A DNA stretch of 34,411 nt, taken from assembly GCA_017853715.1 (NCBI GenBank), contig JAFMIZ010000019.1, positions 1-34,411 on the forward strand. Reading direction: 5' to 3'. Both the position numbers and the translations under genes were made by a program. The DNA comes from Pedosphaera sp. (GTDB taxonomy: Bacteria > Verrucomicrobiota > Verrucomicrobiia > Limisphaerales > DSYF01). Shown piece by piece: positions 22,254-34,411 of this stretch. Each line of letters starts with the position of its first letter. Position 1 is the first letter of the stretch. The notes beneath the pieces are model-generated. The model saw nothing but the letters and a program-made list of their open reading frames with translations. It had not been told where the DNA came from and searched no databases.

Positions 22254-25200
22254 TCAGGGATTGATGATGATCCGATACAATCGGCTGCTGATCGACATCG
22301 GTTTGGCCTGGGTCTTGGGCGGTCCATCGTCATACCACTGTGTCCGTGTCGCCGCGGCCGTCACAGACGGCGTGGCGGCGCGCCAGGTCAGCATGTTGTC
22401 GTCACTGTAGATGACGGTGTAGCTGCGTCCGGGAATGGAAACCCACTCGATGACAAAGCGCGGGTTGCCGGACTCGCGGTTGTCCACGAATGCGCGGTCG
22501 GTCGCCACGCCGTTGGTGAGATTGGTGACCGCCGACGTGGGCAGGGTGGCCTGGATCTCGAGGGAGTTGGTAAACGGCAAGCGCGTGGGGTTGTAGAACT
22601 CGAGGCGCACGGTGGCGTTGCTGCCGGGGTCGAGCGGCGAGTTGTATTGCACGTAGCGGCGGCCATCAACGTTCGTGCCCGTGGCGTTCCAGAGCCAGAC
22701 GTTGGTGGACGCGAAGTCACCAACCAGCACCCGGAAGGCGGGCACGGTGGTGTTGAGGATGTTGGTAACGGTAACCAGCTGCTCATAAAGCCCCGTCTGC
22801 GGATTCAACACATTCGCGCCCTGACGCCAGGTGAACACGGGCTGCACCGTGAGGATGGCGTTGACGGCGGTGAAGGTGTAGTTGCTGGCCGCGAGTGTGC
22901 CCAAGTTGAGAGTGATCGGATAGATGCCGATGGGGCTGCTGTTAGTGGCGGTGGTGGTCAACACGGGCGCACCGCTGACGACGCTGGCGTTCTCGCCGTT
23001 GACGAAACCGGTCAGGGTGTGGGTGAGCGCAGGATTGTTCTGACCGAAGGCGCGGACCTGGTTGTCCGCCGTGACCGTAAGCGACGCGGGAAAGATGACC
23101 AGCGGGGCGGTGAGATTGACTGAGGTGTAGTTGGTGTCCGTCGGGTTGAACAGGACGCTCAAGCTGTTGGTGCCCACGGGGAGGACGGAGCCATTGGTCG
23201 GGTTGTAAGTGAACGTGCCGGGCACGGAGGCCGTGGCGTTGTTCTGGTTGGTGCCGAGCGGCGTGCCATAGGTAACCGGGCCGGCTGGCGTCCAGGTCAC
23301 AGTGGCGGTCGCACTGGTGACGGTCAACGTGCCGTCCACACGACTGAAGATGTAGTTGGTGGCGGCCAGCGAGCCGGCACTGACGGAGACGGGGTAAACG
23401 CCAACCGGACTGCTGATCGCAGCAGCGGTGCTCAGGCCGGGTGCTCCGCTGACGACATTGGTGGTATCGCCCAGCACAAAGCCCGTCACGGAGTAGGTGA
23501 GCGGCGGATTGGACTGGTTGTAGGCACGGATCTGGTTGTTCGCAGTCACTGTGAGCACGACGGGAGCGATGCTGATGTTAAAGGTGGCGGAAGCGCTCAG
23601 ACTCGGCGCGCCATCGTCGGTCGCCACAACCGTGACGGGTAAGGCAAATATGCCAAGCGTCGGCGTGCCGCTGAAAGTGTGCGTGGTGGCGTTGAACGTG
23701 ATGCCGGGCGGCAGGTTGCTCGCCGTCAAGGTGAGCGTTTGTCCGGCGTCCGCGTCCGTAAATGTGTTTGCCGGGAGGGTGTAGCTGAACGGTGAGCCGT
23801 AGACACCCGCTTGATTCGGAATGACCAGCGCGAGCACCGGGGCGCCGTTCAAGGGGCTGACTATGATGCTGACGGTGCCGGTGGCGTAAAGTGCGCCGTC
23901 GAACACAGTGAACGTGAAGCTGTCGTTGCCGTTGTAATTGGTCGCGGGCGTGTAAGTCACCGCGCCGGTGGCTGGGTTCAAACCGCTCAGACTGCCGTGG
24001 GCCGGACCCGAGAGAATGGCAAACGTCAGGTTGGTGCTGTCCACGTCGGAAGCCGCAAGCACCAGATTCGTGGCCACATCCTCCGGCGTGACGAACGATT
24101 GATTGTTGGCCACGGGCGCATCGTTCACCGGGATGATGATGATTTGCACGGTGCTGGTGGCGTAGAGGCTGCCATCAAACACGGACAACAGAACCAGGTT
24201 CGTGCTCGTGTCGTTGAGTGGCGGCGTGTAGTCGAATTGCCCTGTGCCTGTGTTCAACGTCAGCAGACTGGTCGGGCTCTTGAAGAGGACGCCGTAAGTC
24301 AGTGCGTCCCCGTCCAGGTCATCGCCCACGACGTTGGTGGAAAGGGTGGAATCTTCGGTGATTGTGACGGTCAGGTGGTTGATGGTGGGGGCGTCATCGA
24401 CCGGGAGAACGATGACCGTGACGAACGCGCTGTTGGTCACCGTCCCGTCCGTGACGAAATACGTCAGGGTATTGGTGCCATTAAAGTTCGGCGCAGGCGT
24501 GAACACCACATTGGTGCCGACGACCGTAGCGGTGCCACTGGGCGCGGTGACATTCACCAACACGAGCGGGTCGCCATCAGTATCGCGGTCATTCAGGAGC
24601 ACGCGAATTGTGCTCGTGCTGTCCTCGTTCATGACCACGACGTCATTGGTCAGGGCCGGAGGATCGTTCACCGGCAGAAGCACGATGCTCACCGTGGCGA
24701 CAGCACTGGTGAGCGAACCGTCATTCACCGCAAACGCAAAGCTGTCCGCGCCATTGTAGTTGGTCACGGGGGTGTAGATCAGGTTGGCGCCCGTGCCGGA
24801 CAACGCGCCGTGCAGCGGGAGACTGACCAGGGTGAAGTTCGTCACGGGGCCGTCCGCATCAGAGCCGGCCAGCGTGATGGGGAAAGCCACGTCTTCAAGA
24901 TTGGTGACGGACTGGCTGCTCGCCAAGGGCGCGTCGTTCACGGGCGAAACCGTCAGGTTCACGCTGCCGGTGGCGTAGAGCGTGCCGTCGAACACGGTGA
25001 ACGTGAACCCATCGGGGCCAAAGTAATTGGTCGCAGGCGTGTAGGTCACCGCGCCGGTGTTCGTGTTGAGGAGGCTCAGGTTGCCGTTGGTCGGAGCGGT
25101 GAGAATGGCGAACACCAGATTGGTGCTGTCCACATCGCTGGCGGCGAGCACGAGATTCGTGGCCACATCCTCCGGCATGATGAGGTTCTGGTCCGTGGCC

Positions 25201-28103
25201 ACCGGCGCGTCGTTGACCCCGAGGATGGTGAGATTCACCAGCCCGGTGGCGTAATACTGCCCGTCGAACACCGTGAAGCTAAATTGATCGGGGCCGAAGT
25301 AGTTGGTGTTGGGCGTGTAAGTCGCCGTGCCGGCACTGGCATCGAAGGCGGAGAGCAGACCATTCGTGGGTGCGTTCAGAACGGCAAAGGCCAGGTTGGT
25401 GTCATCGTCGCTGGCGGTGTAGACGAGATTAGTGAACGAATCTTCCAGCAGGACGATCCCCTGATTGAAGGCGGTCGGAGCAATGTTGTTTCCCGTGATG
25501 ACAATGATCGCCGTGGCGCTCCCTCCAAAGCCATCGCTCACGGTGTAGGTAATGGCGCCGCTGAAGGAATTCGTGGCGGTGAAGGTCAGGCGGGAGGCAC
25601 CCGGGTTGATGCTGACCGTGCCGTTGCTCGCAACCGCATTGGTGATCGTCAAGGCATCGCCATCCGGATCGGAATCGTTCACCAACGGGAACAACTGGCG
25701 GGGCACGCCATTGGTCGCCATGGCGGCATCATTCAACGCCACGGGTGGGCGGTTGGTGACGCTGATGGTCAACAGGCCGGTGTTGGTGCCGCCCTGCCCA
25801 TCCATAACCGTGTAGGTGAGCAGCACGTTGCCCAGAAAATTGGTGGCGGGTGAAAAGTCCACAGCCGGGCCATTGACGATGGCCGCGCCGTTGGTCTGCG
25901 TGACGTTGATCAACGTGAGCGGGTCGCCGTTCGCGTCGGAATCATTGGCGAGGACGTTGACGCTGATAGGCGTATTGCGAGGAATTGCCGCCGTGTCATT
26001 CACGGTAGTGGGCGGCACGTTACCGACACTCGAGACAACGGGAGGAGCGCTGTTGTTGCCACCGTTGGGGTCGGCGGTCGGACTGCTGACGCTGGCGGTG
26101 TTGGTTGTGCTGCCGCTGGCTGGCGCGGTCACGGTAAGTGTCAGGGCGAAGGTGGCATTCGCGGGCAGCGTTCCCAAGTTGGTCCACATGACATTCCCAC
26201 CGCTCAGGAAACCGCCGTTGCTGGCGCTTACAAAACTCACGTTGCCCGGCAGGACGTCGGTAACAGAAACATTCGTCGCCGCCGAGGGACCGTGGTTGGT
26301 CACGAGCAGCGTGTAACTGAAGTTGGCACTGTTCGCGATCACCGGCGGCCCGGTCTTGATGAGCTGAAGATCTGCGACAGGTGTGACGCTGGTGAACACC
26401 GGCGGCGTGACGTTGTTGGTTGAGTTAGGATCAAGGTTCGGGCCGGAAACAACCGCCGTGTTGCTGAGGTTCATCCCATCGGGCGGCGCCGTCACCGTCA
26501 CCGTCACGGTCGCGGAGTTGCTGGCAGCGATGCTCAGATTGGTCCAAATCACGTTGCCGCCGCTGAGGAATCCGCCGCTGCCCGCGCTGACGAATGTCAC
26601 CGCGGCCGGCAGCGCATCCGTCACCGCAACGCCACTGGCCGGGGATGGCCCAAGGTTGGTGACGGTGAGAGTGTAATCAAAACTGCTCGCCGCCGGGGTG
26701 GTTGAGGGGCCGCTCTTCGTCAGGCCCAGATCCGAGACCGGAATGACGGTGAACACGGAGGTTGCCGGGCTGTTGTCGGTGGTATCCGCCGTCAGGTCGA
26801 TTTGTTCATTGCCGAGGACGCCGGTGACGCGATTGGTGTAATTCCCTGCGGGCTGCGGCGCGATCGCCTGGAAGGTCAGTGTGCCGGTCCCATTACCCGC
26901 AAAGGTAAACGGCATGGCCCAGCGCAGCGTCTGACCTTGGATGATCGGATTCGTGAGCGTGAGCGAGTTGAAGGTGGCGCTGCCGGGCACGTAGGTCACG
27001 TTGCCGGGAAGGCCGGGCAGGACGCTGACGATCTCATCAAGGTCCAAGGGCAGGAAGAATCCGTTCGAAAAGGTGACTGAGTAAGTGATCAAACCACCCG
27101 GCGCCAGCAGCGACGTCGGCGTTACGGTGTGGCTGACGATGGAAAAGAGGTTGGAGGCGGAATAGATCTGATTGCCGCCCCCCCCGGAAGCCAGCGACGA
27201 CAACGCGGTATGCTTGGTGCCGGAGCCGCTGTCCACGAAGGCAAAGGGGCTGTTGGGCAGGTTCGTGCCGGTCACTTTCACGGCCCGGAAGAGGAACGTG
27301 TTGGTGTAGGTCTGGCCCGCGAAGTTGGTAAATCCGGCAATGGTCGGATCAAAGTAAAGTCGATTGGTGTAAGTCGGGTTTTGACTGAACCGCACCACAG
27401 TTTTCTGGAGCTGATATGCGTCAGGCCGCCAGGAGCCCAATACGCCCGGTGAAAATGCGATGCTGTTATTGCCACCGATGGTGCCCGTATCGCCAGCAAT
27501 GACGAGTGTGACCTCGGAGCCAAGAACGGCGAGCGGATTGAGGTTGGTGATGACGGTGACCTTGTTTGCCGCCGCCTCGATCAGGAAGATGATGTTCGTG
27601 TAGCTGTAATTGGAAACCGACAGCAAGGTGCCTTCGATTGGCGGGCCCGCCCAAACCTGAATGGAGTGAACCTCATTGGTGACGTTAAGCAGCGTGTCCG
27701 AATTGCCCGTGAAACCGGGGCCTTTCAGGTAGAAGGCGGCCAACTTGGTTTCGCCCGGGGCCAATGCGCCCAAGGTGCGAATGCCATTATCCTTCGGGGC
27801 AAGCTGAATGCGGTTCGTCGGATAGATATTGGTCAGTGCGACGTAAATGCTCGGAATGGTAACGCCGGTGTTGTTGGAAATGGTGTAGACAGCGTAATTG
27901 TAAACAACATCCGCGGGCACGCCGCCGTTGTCCTTGTTGTCTACATAGAACTTCCCCGGAGCCGAGATGCGGTGAATGACCTGCGCCTCAGCATTCCAAG
28001 CAAAGAATCCAACCAAAAACGCCAACAAGCCGCTCGACACGCGTGGTTTCCGGAGTCGCACGGCCAGTTGAGCCAAAATCCGAATGAAGTCATGAGCATT
28101 CAT
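22254..28103 (-). CDS. Giant secreted repeat protein (DUF11, cadherin-like, He_PIG, MBG domains), 1949 aa
   Basis: The protein has a signal peptide (about 1-41, ending WNAEAQ), a unique N-terminal region (42-450), and two DUF11 conserved-repeat domains (about 458-570 and 577-690). Eight cadherin-like/tandem-95 repeats follow, each marked by an 'NDAPVA'-type motif at about 698, 787, 875, 964, 1056, 1146, 1236 and 1328 (steps of 88-92 residues), with 'DxDxD' calcium-type loops such as 'NDSDANGDPL'. After a putative-Ig (He_PIG) domain at 1425-1515 ('LPPGITFNATTHTFSGTP') come two MBG-type domains (1517-1597 and 1670-1755) around a linking Ig-like unit. The C-terminal region (1756-1949) ends 'IPGRSYTVIYSD...LYRIIINP'. 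There is no LPXTG, PEP-CTERM or TAT tail. Such proteins are usually surface adhesins or matrix parts. The barrel gene follows after 25 bases. Function beyond surface location is inferred. Confidence 0.88.
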   Translation of the reverse strand: MNAHDFIRILAQLAVRLRKPRVSSGLLAFLVGFFAWNAEAQVIHRISAPGKFYVDNKDNGGVPADVVYNYAVYTISNNTGVTIPSIYVALTNIYPTNRIQLAPKDNGIRTLGALAPGETKLAAFYLKGPGFTGNSDTLLNVTNEVHSIQVWAGPPIEGTLLSVSNYSYTNIIFLIEAAANKVTVITNLNPLAVLGSEVTLVIAGDTGTIGGNNSIAFSPGVLGSWRPDAYQLQKTVVRFSQNPTYTNRLYFDPTIAGFTNFAGQTYTNTFLFRAVKVTGTNLPNSPFAFVDSGSGTKHTALSSLASGGGGNQIYSASNLFSIVSHTVTPTSLLAPGGLITYSVTFSNGFFLPLDLDEIVSVLPGLPGNVTYVPGSATFNSLTLTNPIIQGQTLRWAMPFTFAGNGTGTLTFQAIAPQPAGNYTNRVTGVLGNEQIDLTADTTDNSPATSVFTVIPVSDLGLTKSGPSTTPAASSFDYTLTVTNLGPSPASGVAVTDALPAAVTFVSAGSGGFLSGGNVIWTNLSIAASNSATVTVTVTAPPDGMNLSNTAVVSGPNLDPNSTNNVTPPVFTSVTPVADLQLIKTGPPVIANSANFSYTLLVTNHGPSAATNVSVTDVLPGNVSFVSASNGGFLSGGNVMWTNLGTLPANATFALTLTVTAPASGSTTNTASVSSPTADPNGGNNSAPPVVSSVGNVPPTTVNDTAAIPRNTPISVNVLANDSDANGDPLTLINVTQTNGAAIVNGPAVDFSPATNFLGNVLLTYTVMDGQGGTNTGLLTISVTNRPPVALNDAAMATNGVPRQLFPLVNDSDPDGDALTITNAVASNGTVSINPGASRLTFTATNSFSGAITYTVSDGFGGSATAIIVITGNNIAPTAFNQGIVLLEDSFTNLVYTASDDDTNLAFAVLNAPTNGLLSAFDASAGTATYTPNTNYFGPDQFSFTVFDGQYYATGLVNLTILGVNDAPVATDQNLIMPEDVATNLVLAASDVDSTNLVFAILTAPTNGNLSLLNTNTGAVTYTPATNYFGPDGFTFTVFDGTLYATGSVNLTVSPVNDAPLASSQSVTNLEDVAFPITLAGSDADGPVTNFTLVSLPLHGALSGTGANLIYTPVTNYNGADSFAFAVNDGSLTSAVATVSIVLLPVNDPPALTNDVVVMNEDSTSTIRVLLNDRDTDGDPLVLVNVTAPSGTATVVGTNVVFTPAPNFNGTNTLTYFVTDGTVTNSAFVTVIVLPVDDAPTINHLTVTITEDSTLSTNVVGDDLDGDALTYGVLFKSPTSLLTLNTGTGQFDYTPPLNDTSTNLVLLSVFDGSLYATSTVQIIIIPVNDAPVANNQSFVTPEDVATNLVLAASDVDSTNLTFAILSGPAHGSLSGLNPATGAVTYTPATNYNGNDSFTFTVFDGALYATGTVSIIVSPLNGAPVLALVIPNQAGVYGSPFSYTLPANTFTDADAGQTLTLTASNLPPGITFNATTHTFSGTPTLGIFALPVTVVATDDGAPSLSASATFNISIAPVVLTVTANNQIRAYNQSNPPLTYSVTGFVLGDTTNVVSGAPGLSTAAAISSPVGVYPVSVSAGSLAATNYIFSRVDGTLTVTSATATVTWTPAGPVTYGTPLGTNQNNATASVPGTFTYNPTNGSVLPVGTNSLSVLFNPTDTNYTSVNLTAPLVIFPASLTVTADNQVRAFGQNNPALTHTLTGFVNGENASVVSGAPVLTTTATNSSPIGIYPITLNLGTLAASNYTFTAVNAILTVQPVFTWRQGANVLNPQTGLYEQLVTVTNILNTTVPAFRVLVGDFASTNVWLWNATGTNVDGRRYVQYNSPLDPGSNATVRLEFYNPTRLPFTNSLEIQATLPTSAVTNLTNGVATDRAFVDNRESGNPRFVIEWVSIPGRSYTVIYSDDNMLTWRAATPSVTAAATRTQWYDDGPPKTQAKPMSISSRLYRIIINP
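23846..26021 (-). repeat. Eight tandem cadherin-like repeats within the giant gene
   Basis: DNA encoding eight repeats of about 90 residues. Repeats starting near residues 964 and 1328 share long near-identical strings ('EDVATNLVLAASDVDSTNL', 'YTPATNY', 'FTVFDG.LYATG'). The DNA there is also close (around 25130-25180 and 24040-24095), pointing to a fairly recent internal copying event. Confidence 0.75.
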
Positions 28104-32300: not shown

Positions 32301-33009
32301 AAAACGGGTTGCACGCCTCGCGGCCTTGGAAGAACGCATCAGGATTCTGCGCCGTGCCGCGCAGGACGGGTTTGTCCGGCGTCATGGCGCGACCTCGGAA
32401 CTCGGCAATCAGGCGGTCGTCAATCATCGCCTTGAGATCGCTCTCGGCCGGCATCTCGATTTTTTGCACTTCATGCGAGGTGCGGAAGCCGTCGAAGAAA
32501 TGAACAAACGGCAGGCGCGATTTGAGCGAGGCAGCCTGGGCGATGAGCGCAAGGTCCGTCGCCTCTTGGACACTGGCAGAACAAAGCATGCCCCAACCGC
32601 AAGACCGAACGGCCATCACGTCGCTATGGTCGCCGAAGATGGACAACGCGTGGGTGGCCACCGTGCGGGCGGTCACGTGGAAGACGCACGGCAACAATTC
32701 GCCCGCGATCTTGAACATGTTGGGAATCATCAGCAGCAAACCCTGGGACGCTGTGAAGGTGGTGGCCATGGTGCCTGTTTGCAGCGCACCGTGGACGCCG
32801 CCAACTGCGCCACCTTCGCTCTGATATTGCACCACGGACGGCACGGTGCTCCAGAGATTGGGCTTCCCCTCGGACGACCATTGGTCGCAGAATTCGGCCA
32901 TAGGGGAGGATGGCGTGATGGGGTAAATGGCCATGACCTCGTTGAGGCGGTAGGCGATGTTGGCGACGGCCTCATTGCCGTCGAGCGTGACCATTTTGCG
33001 GGCGTTCAT
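29398..33009 (-). CDS. nifJ: Pyruvate:ferredoxin (flavodoxin) oxidoreductase
   Basis: This cytoplasmic enzyme turns pyruvate and CoA into acetyl-CoA, CO2 and reduced ferredoxin using thiamine diphosphate (TPP). The 1203-residue single chain has the usual full length and domain order. The N-terminal pyrimidine-binding domain has 'AYRLNEVMAIYPITPSSPMAE' and 'QYQSEGGAVGGVHGAL'. The gamma domain is around residues 400-640. A ferredoxin-like domain has two 4Fe-4S motifs, CIQCLKCVAICP (about 695) and CTGCGICVDVCP (about 750). The TPP domain has 'GACSGCGETPYVKML', 'GCSSIYGGNLPSTPY' and 'GGDGWAYDIGYGGLDH' (about 974), and the conserved Cys of 'NKCGRGPTWCNSL' is present. All cluster ligands seen are intact. 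It implies oxygen-limited or fermentative metabolism. It heads an operon with the dihydroorotate-dehydrogenase-like gene. Confidence 0.97.
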   Translation of the reverse strand: MNARKMVTLDGNEAVANIAYRLNEVMAIYPITPSSPMAEFCDQWSSEGKPNLWSTVPSVVQYQSEGGAVGGVHGALQTGTMATTFTASQGLLLMIPNMFKIAGELLPCVFHVTARTVATHALSIFGDHSDVMAVRSCGWGMLCSASVQEATDLALIAQAASLKSRLPFVHFFDGFRTSHEVQKIEMPAESDLKAMIDDRLIAEFRGRAMTPDKPVLRGTAQNPDAFFQGREACNPFYAATPRIVQETMAQFARVVGRSYNLFDYVGAPDAERVIVLMGSGCEVAHEAVDHLTRQGEKVGILKVRLFRPFDVSSFLGTLPASVKRIAVLDRTKEPGAAGEPMYQDVMTAVAEAVVNGSSQFRTMPKILGGRYGLSSKEFTPAMVKAVFDNLAADQPKHGFTVGIHDDISGTSLSVDAKFSTEPDSVIRAMFYGLGADGTVGANKNSIKIIGEETDNYAQGYFVYDSKKSGSMTVSHLRFGPQPIRSSYLVSRANFVACHLPGFMEKYDILRNLVPGGTFLLNTPHSASEIWSRLPTPVQKQLVSKKAKFYVIDATTVARNSGMGGRINTIMQVCFFALAGVLPREQAIEQIKKSIKKTYGKKGEEVVVMNLKAVDNTLEHLHEVSITGKINGIGNLLPPVTPNAPEFVKHVIGKLTAGDGDELPVSVFPVDGTFPTATAQYEKRNLALEIPVWDEKVCIQCLKCVAICPHATIRAKVYDATETANAPATFKSTDSRLPEFKGRKFTLQVAAEDCTGCGICVDVCPAKNKAEARLKAINMRPQAPLRDAERTNWDFFLDLPELDRRTLKPTQLRQQQLMQPLFEFSGACSGCGETPYVKMLSQLFGDRAVIANATGCSSIYGGNLPSTPYATNKCGRGPTWCNSLFEDNAEFGLGFRVSIDKQREFACELVKKLAPQLGDNLINDLLLADQSTEAGIFDQRDRVVALKQKLAQLSSNEAKLLAPLADTLVKKSVWILGGDGWAYDIGYGGLDHVLASGRDVNVLVMDTEVYSNTGGQMSKATPRGAVAKFAAGGKPAGKKDLGLIAMTYGNIYVASVAMGAKDEQTLKAFVEAESYPGPSLIIAYSHCIAHGIALDLGVGARQQKAAVESGQWLLYRYDPRRAERGQNPLQLDSSAAKTQVQDYMLSENRFKMLTKSKPDEAKRFFAQAQVDADRRWKFYEYLAKRSYVEGQPPVTPPQPSTVEN

Positions 33010-33229
33010 GCGTTGAAGTGTTGTTTCCGGGAGGGCCGATGACCGGCGTGCGTCCCTAAGAACAGCCTAGATTGCCAAGCGGGTCGGGCCTTCCGTATTT
33101 TGCCAAAGGCGCAACATGATTTGGCTTGGTCGGAAGTCGGAGGCGGGCAGCCTCAACGAGTTGTCCTAAATACCGGTGATTCGGGGGGTTGCGCTAATGG
33201 GGAGAATTCGGGTAAACCATCCTCGCCCA
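33010..33229. other. Divergent intergenic region nifJ / DUF485 gene
   Basis: 220 bases between divergent genes, expected to hold both promoters. I see no definite element; an open frame through it has no protein-like content. Confidence 0.4.
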
Positions 33230-33559
33230 ATGCAAAATCCGCCGTCACCCAAGCCGGACATGCACAGCGAAGACTTCCTGCGTTCGCTGATGCGCAAACA
33301 ACTCAAGCTCTCCATCACCTGCGCCTTGGCCTTCCTGGTGGTCCTGCTAGGCCTGCCCGTCGCGAACTATTTTGCACCGGAACTAATGGCCAGACGCATC
33401 TTCGGCTTCACTTTGACGTGGTTCCTGCTCGGCGTGGGATTCTTCCCCGCCGTGTGGGTCATCTCCTTCTATTTCATCCGCAAGTCGATTGCGCTGGAGG
33501 AAAGCGAGGTTGCAGGGGTGAAAGGGGGAGATGGAGAAAGGGAGAATTCTTCGTTGTGA
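33230..33559 (+). CDS. DUF485-type small membrane protein, symporter partner
   Basis: This 109-residue protein has two membrane helices (about 27-46 and 57-84) joined by 'FAPELMARRIFGFTLTW', the layout of DUF485 proteins (YjcH in E. coli) that are encoded directly before acetate-type sodium:solute symporters (ActP). The partner symporter gene starts 446 bases downstream, separated here by a four-helix-bundle gene. The last 16 or so residues (about 94-109, 'VAGVKGGDGERENSSL') are encoded by a purine-rich repeat and look like an altered tail. The TGA overlaps the next gene's GTG. Start ATG 33230 is chosen by family; an upstream in-frame start is not protein-like. Confidence 0.75.
   Translation: MQNPPSPKPDMHSEDFLRSLMRKQLKLSITCALAFLVVLLGLPVANYFAPELMARRIFGFTLTWFLLGVGFFPAVWVISFYFIRKSIALEESEVAGVKGGDGERENSSL
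33514..33544. repeat. Left arm of an imperfect inverted repeat around the four-helix gene
   Basis: The purine tract AGGGGTGAAAGGGGGAGATG and its continuation to 33544 (GAGAAAGGGAG) matches, with a few mismatches and small gaps, the reverse complement of the pyrimidine tract at 33961-33990. It ends 12 bases before the GTG of the four-helix gene. Confidence 0.6.
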
Positions 33560-33960
33560 CAGCCAAGGGCAAGATCACCCATCACTGGCAGTTGGACGTC
33601 TATAAACTGTCAGTCGAGGCAGGAATGCGTTTGTTTGAGTTGTCAAAGAAGTTTCCGCGCGAAGAAATGTATTCGCTCACTGACCAAGTCAGCCGGTCTT
33701 CGCGTTCCGTATCTTGCCATATTTCAGAAGGATGGCGCCGCAGACGATACGAAGCTGCCTTCTGCGATAAACTGAATGGCTCCGAAAGCGAAGCCGCCGA
33801 GACTCAAACTTGGATCGAATACGCGGTTCGGTGCGACTACATCACCGCAAAGGAAGGACGCGAACTGCATAAAAGCTATGACCACATCATGGGAAAGTTG
33901 GTAAACATGCAGAACAATCCCGAAGTGTGGCTCCTGAATAACCCACGCACCCGCGCCTGA
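33556..33960 (+). CDS. Four-helix-bundle protein (S23 / 23S rRNA intervening-sequence type)
   Basis: This 134-residue helical protein has the S23 family pattern: 'HWQLDVYKLSVEAGMRLFELSKKFPREEMYSLTDQVSRSS', 'HISEGWRRRRYEAAFCDKLNGSESEAAETQTWIEYA', and 'HIMGKLVNMQNNPE'. Relatives are encoded by intervening sequences in 23S rRNA genes, stand as free genes in many genomes, or act as Avd partners of diversity-generating reverse transcriptases; a general function is not known. No reverse transcriptase or rRNA gene is near. The GTG start (33556-33558) overlaps the TGA of the DUF485 gene. The coding region is framed by purine (33514-33544) and pyrimidine (33961-33990) tracts forming an imperfect inverted repeat. 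It splits a gene pair that is normally adjacent, so it is probably an insertion. Confidence 0.82.
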   Translation: MTAKGKITHHWQLDVYKLSVEAGMRLFELSKKFPREEMYSLTDQVSRSSRSVSCHISEGWRRRRYEAAFCDKLNGSESEAAETQTWIEYAVRCDYITAKEGRELHKSYDHIMGKLVNMQNNPEVWLLNNPRTRA

Positions 33961-33990
33961 TCACCCTTTCACCTTTTCTCCCCTTCACCC
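33961..33990. repeat. Right arm of the imperfect inverted repeat
   Basis: The pyrimidine tract TCACCCTTTCACCTTTTCTC and its continuation CCCTTCACCC follows directly after the stop codon of the four-helix gene. It is the near reverse complement of 33514-33544. A T6 run follows at 33991-33996. Confidence 0.6.
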
Positions 33991-34005
33991 TTTTTTCAAT
34001 CACCC

Positions 34006-34411
34006 ATGGAACCCATCCTCGCCACCGCAGTTGACCCCTACATCCTCGCCTTCAGCGCCATCACCGTCGTCGTGACGATTTGGATGGGCTTTCGCTCAGC
34101 GAAGACTTCCAAGACGGCCAGCGACTTTTTCGTGGCCGGCCGCAGCGTGAGCGTCGGCTGGAATGCCAGCGCCATCTCGGGTGAATACCTCAGCGCCGCC
34201 AGTTTCATGGGCATCGCAGGCATGGTGATGTCGAGCGGTTACGACGCGCTGTGGTATCCGGTCTGTTACGCGTGTGGGTATCTGTTCCTGCTGTTGTTCA
34301 TCGCCGGGCCGTTGCGGCGCTTCGGGGCTTACACGATTCCCGATTTCGCTGAGGGCCGGTTCGACTCGCCGCTGTTCCGCAAGATCGCCGTGTGCTTCGT
34401 GCTGTTCATCG
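34006..34411 (+). CDS. Sodium:solute symporter (ActP-like), N-terminal part
   Basis: The first 135 residues of a SSS-family transporter are present; the gene runs off the right edge. Visible are a first helix ('ILAFSAITVVVTIWMGF'), 'FFVAGRSVSVGWNASAISGEYLSAASFMGIAGMVM' (helices 2-3, with the Ser/Ala-rich Na+-site region), 'GYDALWYPVCYACGYLFLLLFIAGPLRRFG' and 'YTIPDFAEGRF'. The YTIPDF motif and SGYDAL stretch are typical of the acetate/monocarboxylate ActP branch rather than PutP. The preceding DUF485 gene agrees with that. Substrate is inferred. Confidence 0.88.
   Translation, partial: MEPILATAVDPYILAFSAITVVVTIWMGFRSAKTSKTASDFFVAGRSVSVGWNASAISGEYLSAASFMGIAGMVMSSGYDALWYPVCYACGYLFLLLFIAGPLRRFGAYTIPDFAEGRFDSPLFRKIAVCFVLFI

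What the first reader, a model, noticed from the sequence alone, without database searches (positions are those of the whole stretch)
33514..33996. Four-helix-bundle gene bracketed by an inverted repeat, inserted between DUF485 and its symporter
Seen: a complete S23-type gene sits between a DUF485 gene and an ActP-like symporter, genes normally adjacent. A purine tract before it and a pyrimidine tract right after its stop are near reverse complements of about 30 bases. The purine tract is read as the odd tail of DUF485, and the GTG start overlaps the DUF485 stop. Inference: the gene with its arms behaves as a small mobile or domesticated cassette without its own transposase, landing so that translation of the host operon is kept. 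S23-type genes have no settled function.
Basis: partly seen in the sequence, partly recalled or inferred. Interest (0 to 1): 0.62.

Follow-up and report, generated by a model that had tools for sequence, protein, structure and literature searches.

The report
Four-helix gene cassette with repeat arms
A small gene of unknown function, found in many bacteria, turns out to sit almost everywhere between two matching mirror-image arrays of 7- or 8-letter DNA repeats, and this gene-plus-arms unit comes, goes and is swapped at the same spots between host genes, so an orphan gene family now looks like a widespread, testable kind of small mobile cassette.

Summary
In detail: an S23/IVP gene (PF05635, 33556-33960) lies between DUF485 and an ActP-like symporter, bracketed by 30-nt arms that are 80% complementary. 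In this window alone the arms are only modestly unlikely (p about 0.003-0.006). Comparison makes them real. In 97 S23 loci of the order, 74% have strongly matching arms, against 2% when arms of different loci in the same genome are paired and 0 of 30 for PIN-domain genes. The same holds across bacterial phyla. The arms are inverted arrays of 4-5 degenerate 7-nt units (8-nt in the window's clade). Each locus has its own unit sequence, and the two arms change together. At the window's site and a second site, relatives have the flanking genes with no cassette, or a different cassette; the protein is under strong purifying selection (dN/dS about 0.05). A second, unrelated family (GxxExxY) is packaged the same way with about 9-nt units. 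So the mobile-cassette reading is largely supported, but the arms are not a shared terminal repeat, and 'landing in frame' is special to one subclade. How it moves, and that the protein sets the period by binding the arms, are inferences. Closest known thing: S23-encoding intervening sequences of 23S rRNA.

The parts
33230..33559 (+). DUF485 gene, upstream host gene; its last codons are read through the upstream arm
   Evidence: PF04341 E=6.5e-10; tail VAGVKGGDGERENSSL encoded by the arm
33516..33545 (+). upstream arm: degenerate array of about four 8-nt units (GGTGAAAG/GGGGAGAT/GGAGAAAG/GGAGAATT), C-poor on the coding strand
   Evidence: inverted pair I1; lag-8 identity 0.66
33556..33960 (+). 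S23 / 23S rRNA-IVP four-helix-bundle gene, 134 aa, GTG start overlapping the DUF485 stop
   Evidence: PF05635, TIGR02436; relatives 2gsc and 2rld have five chains each; dN/dS about 0.05 against its congener
33961..33990 (+). downstream arm: inverted copy, 8-nt units (TCACCCTT/TCACCTTT/TCTCCCCT/TCACCCTT), directly after the S23 stop and before the symporter start
   Evidence: inverted pair I1; lag-8 identity 0.63
34006..34411 (+). ActP-like sodium:solute symporter, downstream host gene (cut by the window end)
   Evidence: PF00474 E=3e-19, TIGR03648 and others

Best explanation
The feature is one copy of a widespread class of small gene cassette: one S23 gene closed between two inverted arrays of 4-5 short units (7 nt; 8 nt in this clade), placed between two host genes read in the same direction. 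Shown: the architecture is a property of the S23 family in many phyla; the two arms of a locus match each other and not those of other loci; the unit sequence changes while period and pairing stay; sites are found empty, occupied, swapped, or holding a GxxExxY cassette built the same way with about 9-nt units; the protein is conserved. Inferred: the cassette is, or derives from, a minimal mobile element that moves with help from outside; the arms are kept alike at the DNA level (copying or conversion between paired arms) rather than by selection on mRNA pairing; the cassette's own protein fixes the period. The likely way is that the S23 ring (five chains in both solved structures) handles an arm of about 33 nt as 4-5 steps of 7 or 8 nt, one step per subunit, so that ends are recognised by spacing and pairing, not by sequence.
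For: Own-arm vs mismatched-arm scores: order 74% >=20 vs 2.0% (same genome) and 2.7% (other genomes); phylum 55% vs 1.8%; all phyla 71% vs 3.1%; PIN control 0/30 >=16. In 400 kb of one genome the only periodic-arm pairs with a gene-sized gap are three, and all enclose S23. Period: lag-7 identity 0.49-0.58 vs about 0.27 baseline; window-like clade lag 8 in 13/14; 7/8 label needs 10 changes on the S23 tree vs 32 shuffled; GxxExxY lag 8-10 in 38/43, mode 9. Arrays 32-35 nt in both period classes. Co-variation at one orthologous site: own median 23 vs cross 14, 0/20000 permutations. Empty sites; cassette swap between congeners whose DUF485 is about 90% alike while S23 is 58% identical in protein; another GxxExxY occupant. 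dN/dS 0.05. No G.U excess (378 vs 526 A.C), against selection on sense-RNA pairing. Neighbouring host genes co-directional and abutting.
Against: No transposition event, target duplication or excision product was seen. S23 genes mostly cluster by site (8 context changes vs 23 shuffled), so jumps are rare and swaps could be homologous recombination between species. Solo arrays without S23 are common in some genomes (G028: 101 counted GRGTTGA matches, overlapping ones included), so arrays are not made only with S23 in cis. The excess of A.C over G.U has no explanation yet. Ring-step binding is untested.
Confidence: 0.5

Rival explanations
1. RNA-level intervening sequence. The arms pair in the operon mRNA, loop out the S23 frame, and RNase III cuts the stem, as for S23-encoding IVSs in 23S rRNA; arms stay matched by selection on the RNA stem.
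For: The arms pair in both the MFE and the centroid fold of the window RNA, z=-2.1. The Coxiella IVS has a 28-bp inverted-repeat stem, tandem heptamers before its S23 frame and RNase III excision (PMC4990558). Cassettes sit between co-directional genes.
Against: G.U pairs, which an RNA stem tolerates, are not enriched over A.C (378 vs 526). It does not explain why the period follows the protein family. A dead S23 gene keeps near-perfect arms (L423).
Confidence: 0.2
2. Passenger in pre-existing repeats. Heptamer arrays and hairpins spread through genomes by their own means, and S23 and GxxExxY genes were inserted into, or prefer, such arrays.
For: G028 has many solo arrays and small hairpins with no S23, of the same length as the arms. 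Xanthomonas, Nostoc and Beggiatoaceae heptamer repeats are known without mention of S23 (PMC4692102, PMC4679880).
Against: Empty sites mostly show no array. S23 cassettes in genomes with few solo arrays still have arms. Each arm pair in a genome is private. The period differs by protein family.
Confidence: 0.17
3. Regulatory element of an ordinary operon gene: the arms control translation of S23 or of the symporter, for instance by hiding the S23 start region or by coupling to DUF485.
For: GTGA/ATGA overlap with DUF485 in the window's S23 subclade. The purine-rich arm lies just before the start codon. 26% of upstream arms hold stops in all three frames vs 10% in shuffles.
Against: Overlap in only 8 of 21 orthologs. 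The same arms occur at sites with unrelated neighbours in many phyla and around an unrelated protein family. Occupancy is patchy.
Confidence: 0.07
4. Chance low-complexity DNA: two purine/pyrimidine tracts that happen to match.
For: Two unrelated inverted pairs of similar score occur elsewhere in the window; p only 0.0025-0.006 on shuffling.
Against: All comparative tests.
Confidence: 0.01

Closest known systems
Intervening sequences (IVS) of 23S rRNA that encode S23p (Coxiella, Leptospira and others)
   Same: Same protein family; ends are inverted repeats of about 28 bp; the Coxiella IVS has tandem heptamers upstream of the S23 frame (PMC4990558).
   Different: Lies between protein genes, not in rRNA; arms at this site change sequence together between species; the protein is under strong purifying selection here, whereas Coxiella S23p is reported as decaying; RNase III processing not tested.
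Dispersed heptamer repeats (TAACTGA in Beggiatoaceae and Cyanobacteria; GGGAATC in Xanthomonas; GGGGATT in Nostoc)
   Same: Short tandem units of 7 nt, intergenic, in Xanthomonas often as inverted pairs (70 in Xcc) (PMC4679880, PMC4692102).
   Different: No link to S23 or GxxExxY is reported there; the arms here bracket a gene, the unit is private to the locus, and the window's unit is 8 nt.
Avd of diversity-generating retroelements
   Same: PF05635 resembles Avd in sequence and structure (4DWL vs 2GSC; PMC10053308); target hairpins also matter in DGRs (PMC3240598, seen as a search hit only, otherwise own knowledge).
   Different: No reverse transcriptase, template repeat or variable repeat was seen in the window's frames or in the cassettes.
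MITE / IS-type elements and REP hairpins
   Same: Small, inverted ends, presence/absence between relatives, no own transposase (as MITEs).
   Different: Ends are not conserved between copies; no target duplication seen; the cassette carries a conserved intact gene.

Membership tests
PF05635 / TIGR02436 (S23, 23S rRNA-IVP, four helix bundle) | profile match above the curated cut-off | tested here: met
   91.7 bits vs 33.8 (PF05635) and 83 vs 24 (TIGR02436)
23S rRNA intervening sequence (IVS) | located inside a 23S rRNA gene | tested here: not met
   lies between DUF485 and SSF genes; no Rfam match in 32900-34411
23S rRNA intervening sequence (IVS) | S23 frame closed by inverted repeats able to form a stem | tested here: met
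   arms 80% complementary; paired in the MFE and centroid fold
23S rRNA intervening sequence (IVS) | excision from RNA by RNase III | not testable with these tools
   needs RNA mapping
Classical transposon / MITE | terminal inverted repeats conserved between copies of the family | tested here: not met
   arms of other loci do not match better than background, even in the same genome
Classical transposon / MITE | empty sites and target-site duplication | tested here: inconclusive
   empty sites found; relatives too divergent to read a duplication
Diversity-generating retroelement | reverse transcriptase plus template/variable repeat pair near the Avd-like gene | tested here: inconclusive
   by eye, no RT-like frame in the window's ORF list; no RT profile or TR/VR search was run
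Heptamer repeat arrays (STRR-like) | tandem units of 7 nt | tested here: not met
   the window's arms have period 8; S23 relatives mostly 7

The most novel reading that the evidence does not exclude
A new category of mobile cassette whose ends are defined by repeat period and mutual pairing instead of sequence: the encoded protein (S23 pentamer, 7 or 8 nt; GxxExxY, about 9 nt) measures and perhaps writes the arms, and the long-known orphan heptamer arrays of many bacteria are its solo ends or by-products.
Probability: 0.3. Interest if true: 0.9.

Novelty: new variant of a known kind. Interest (0 to 1): 0.75.

Why it matters
S23/IVP proteins have had solved structures but no function, and heptamer arrays have been reported from several bacterial groups without an owner. 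If the arms are a general part of S23 and GxxExxY genes, both puzzles become one testable system: does the protein bind, copy or cut arrays of its own period? It would also mean that annotation misses a widespread class of small element sitting inside operons, and it would tie 23S rRNA intervening sequences to a much larger family living between protein genes.

Tried and rejected
1) Searching for one shared tract: given up, the arms are locus-private. 2) RNA stem as the driver: tested by G.U against A.C mismatches, no G.U excess; kept only as a rival. 3) 'Heptamer arrays occur only where S23 occurs': 400 kb each from genomes without and with S23 gave 0 vs 2 strict arrays, G028 18: suggestive, too few. 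4) Occupancy of the site as a clade trait: 10 changes vs 11.2 shuffled, tree poorly resolved: patchy, but number of gains unknown. 5) Arms specific to S23: wrong, GxxExxY genes have them too, with another period. 6) Solo arrays in G028 as hidden S23 remnants: no S23 or GxxExxY match in the 20 regions read around them. 7) Three-frame stops as the reason for a period not divisible by 3: enriched (26% vs 10%) but in a minority of arms. 8) Rfam: no match. 9) Literature: no paper in the open-access library was found that links these arms to S23 or GxxExxY; subscription papers were not searchable.

Full report
WHAT IS THERE. The S23 gene runs from GTG 33556 to TGA 33958-33960 (134 aa; PF05635, TIGR02436) and lies between DUF485 and an ActP-like symporter. 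The arms are 33516-33545 and 33961-33990, 80% complementary, each with an 8-nt period. Against dinucleotide shuffles the match has p=0.0025-0.006, and two unrelated inverted pairs of similar score exist elsewhere in the 34 kb. The window alone is therefore weak evidence, and the case rests on comparison.

THE ARMS ARE A GENERAL FEATURE OF S23 GENES. I took S23 genes from 58 genomes of the order and aligned the flank before each gene with the reverse complement of the flank after it. Own arms score >=20 in 74% of 97 loci; arms of different loci reach that in 2.0% (same genome) and 2.7% (other genomes) (a first version with 116 genes is, the arms are listed). The same test gives 55% vs 1.8% over the phylum and 71% vs 3.1% in a sample from all phyla, including Clostridia, Cyanobacteria, Bacteroidota, Proteobacteria, Acidobacteria, Chloroflexi, Planctomycetes and archaea. 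PIN-domain genes from the same genomes give 0 of 30 even at >=16. In 400 kb of one genome, scanned without regard to genes, the periodic-arm pairs with a gene-sized gap are three and all enclose S23.

WHAT THE ARMS ARE. They are degenerate tandem arrays, 32-35 nt long, of 4-5 units. Identity at lag 7 is 0.49-0.58 against about 0.27 at neutral lags; 136 of 190 loci have best lag 7 and 40 have lag 8. Among the genes closest to the window's, 13 of 14 have lag 8. The 7/8 label needs 10 changes on the S23 tree against 32 when shuffled; orthologs that share a site contribute to this. The upstream arm is poor in C and the downstream arm poor in G. Unit sequence differs between loci of one genome, for example in G028.

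ARMS CHANGE TOGETHER. At the DUF485/symporter site, 20 orthologous cassettes have arms as different as GTGAGTGG, GGGAGAAA and CAGGTGGG. Each upstream arm fits its own downstream arm (median 23) better than those of other species (median 14; 0 of 20000 permutations). If pairing in mRNA were what is selected, G.U mismatches should outnumber A.C; they do not (378 vs 526). I therefore favour upkeep at the DNA level, although the arms do pair in the predicted RNA fold.

EMPTY, OCCUPIED, SWAPPED. In 12 relatives DUF485 is followed directly by the symporter with no S23 or GxxExxY gene. One relative (L286) has at this site a GxxExxY gene with its own inverted arms, another (L277) a shortened remnant of one. 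Two species of one genus, G064 and G006, have DUF485 about 90% alike by eye in the alignment (blocks over the wider locus 79-93%) but different cassettes: their S23 proteins are 58% identical, whereas the G064 protein is 81% identical to the window's, from another family. At a second site, before EboC in the Ebo operon, at least 13 genomes have gaps of at most 66 nt, eight loci have S23 cassettes of 434-473 nt, and one (L423) has a ruined S23 gene between near-perfect arms. On the S23 tree the window's clade changes context 8 times against 23 when shuffled: jumps happen, but mostly a cassette stays at its site. Occupancy on the DUF485+symporter tree is patchy and not clade-like, on a poorly resolved tree.

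THE PROTEIN IS KEPT. dN/dS between the window's gene and congeneric or near copies is about 0.05 where dS is not saturated. Two solved relatives, 2gsc and 2rld, have five chains each; a paper cites the Xanthomonas S23p as a homopentamer (PMC4990558).

PLACE IN THE OPERON. In 55-69% of loci a forward frame of at least 100 aa ends within 60 nt before the upstream arm (0-13% at shifted positions), and in 70-75% a forward start lies by the end of the downstream arm (41-43% shifted).

A SECOND FAMILY WITH THE SAME FORMAT. GxxExxY genes (TIGR04256) have matching arms in 61% (order) and 67% (phylum) of loci at >=20, against 2-4% for mismatched arms. Their period is 8-10 nt in 38 of 43 loci, with mode 9. 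Thus the period goes with the encoded protein family while the sequence does not. This is the main reason to think that the protein reads or makes the arms.

WHAT DOES NOT FIT SIMPLY. Solo arrays without S23 are frequent in G028 and have the same length as arms. They may be ends left behind, by-products, or an independent repeat that S23 uses. The excess of A.C over G.U is unexplained. No movement was observed.

COMPARISON WITH THE KNOWN. The nearest described thing is the S23-encoding intervening sequence of 23S rRNA, which in Coxiella has a 28-bp inverted-repeat stem and tandem heptamers (PMC4990558). Heptamer arrays are described in Beggiatoaceae, Xanthomonas and Nostoc without mention of S23 in their text. 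PF05635 resembles Avd (PMC10053308). I found no paper that joins these observations; only open-access papers were searchable.

VERDICT. The finding is real and larger than stated. It is a member of PF05635 and works like a relative of IVS elements, but does not meet the defining location of an IVS, nor the conserved-ends rule of transposons.

Noticed in passing
L343-L372, L433-L462: GxxExxY (TIGR04256) genes are bracketed by inverted arms with a period of about 9 nt, often of the type CCACAGAGAACACAGAG or CACGGATTTCACGGATT.
   Followed up: yes
G028, e.g. L493-L512; also G078, G151: Dispersed solo arrays of GRGTTGA (101 pattern matches in G028, overlapping ones counted; 24 in G078, 41 in G151; 0 in several relatives), about 35 nt each, mostly with no S23 nearby.
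   Followed up: partly
L423 (G151), before EboC: S23 gene ruined by an insertion while its two arms remain almost perfect GAGTTGA arrays.
   Followed up: partly
G000:C23:24103-25343: In the window's own genome a GxxExxY gene follows directly after EboC, while the congener G001 has an S23 cassette directly before EboC: the Ebo operon looks like a hot spot.
   Followed up: no
L501 (G028:C13:10500-14800): Some ten different short-period arrays of several unit types crowd into 4.3 kb.
   Followed up: no
arms of all S23 loci: Arm mismatches are A.C more often than G.U on the coding strand (526 vs 378), which would be G.U on the other strand.
   Followed up: partly
window 22254-28103 (-): Frame of 1949 aa with many repeated Ig/cadherin-like segments, probably a large surface protein.
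   Followed up: no
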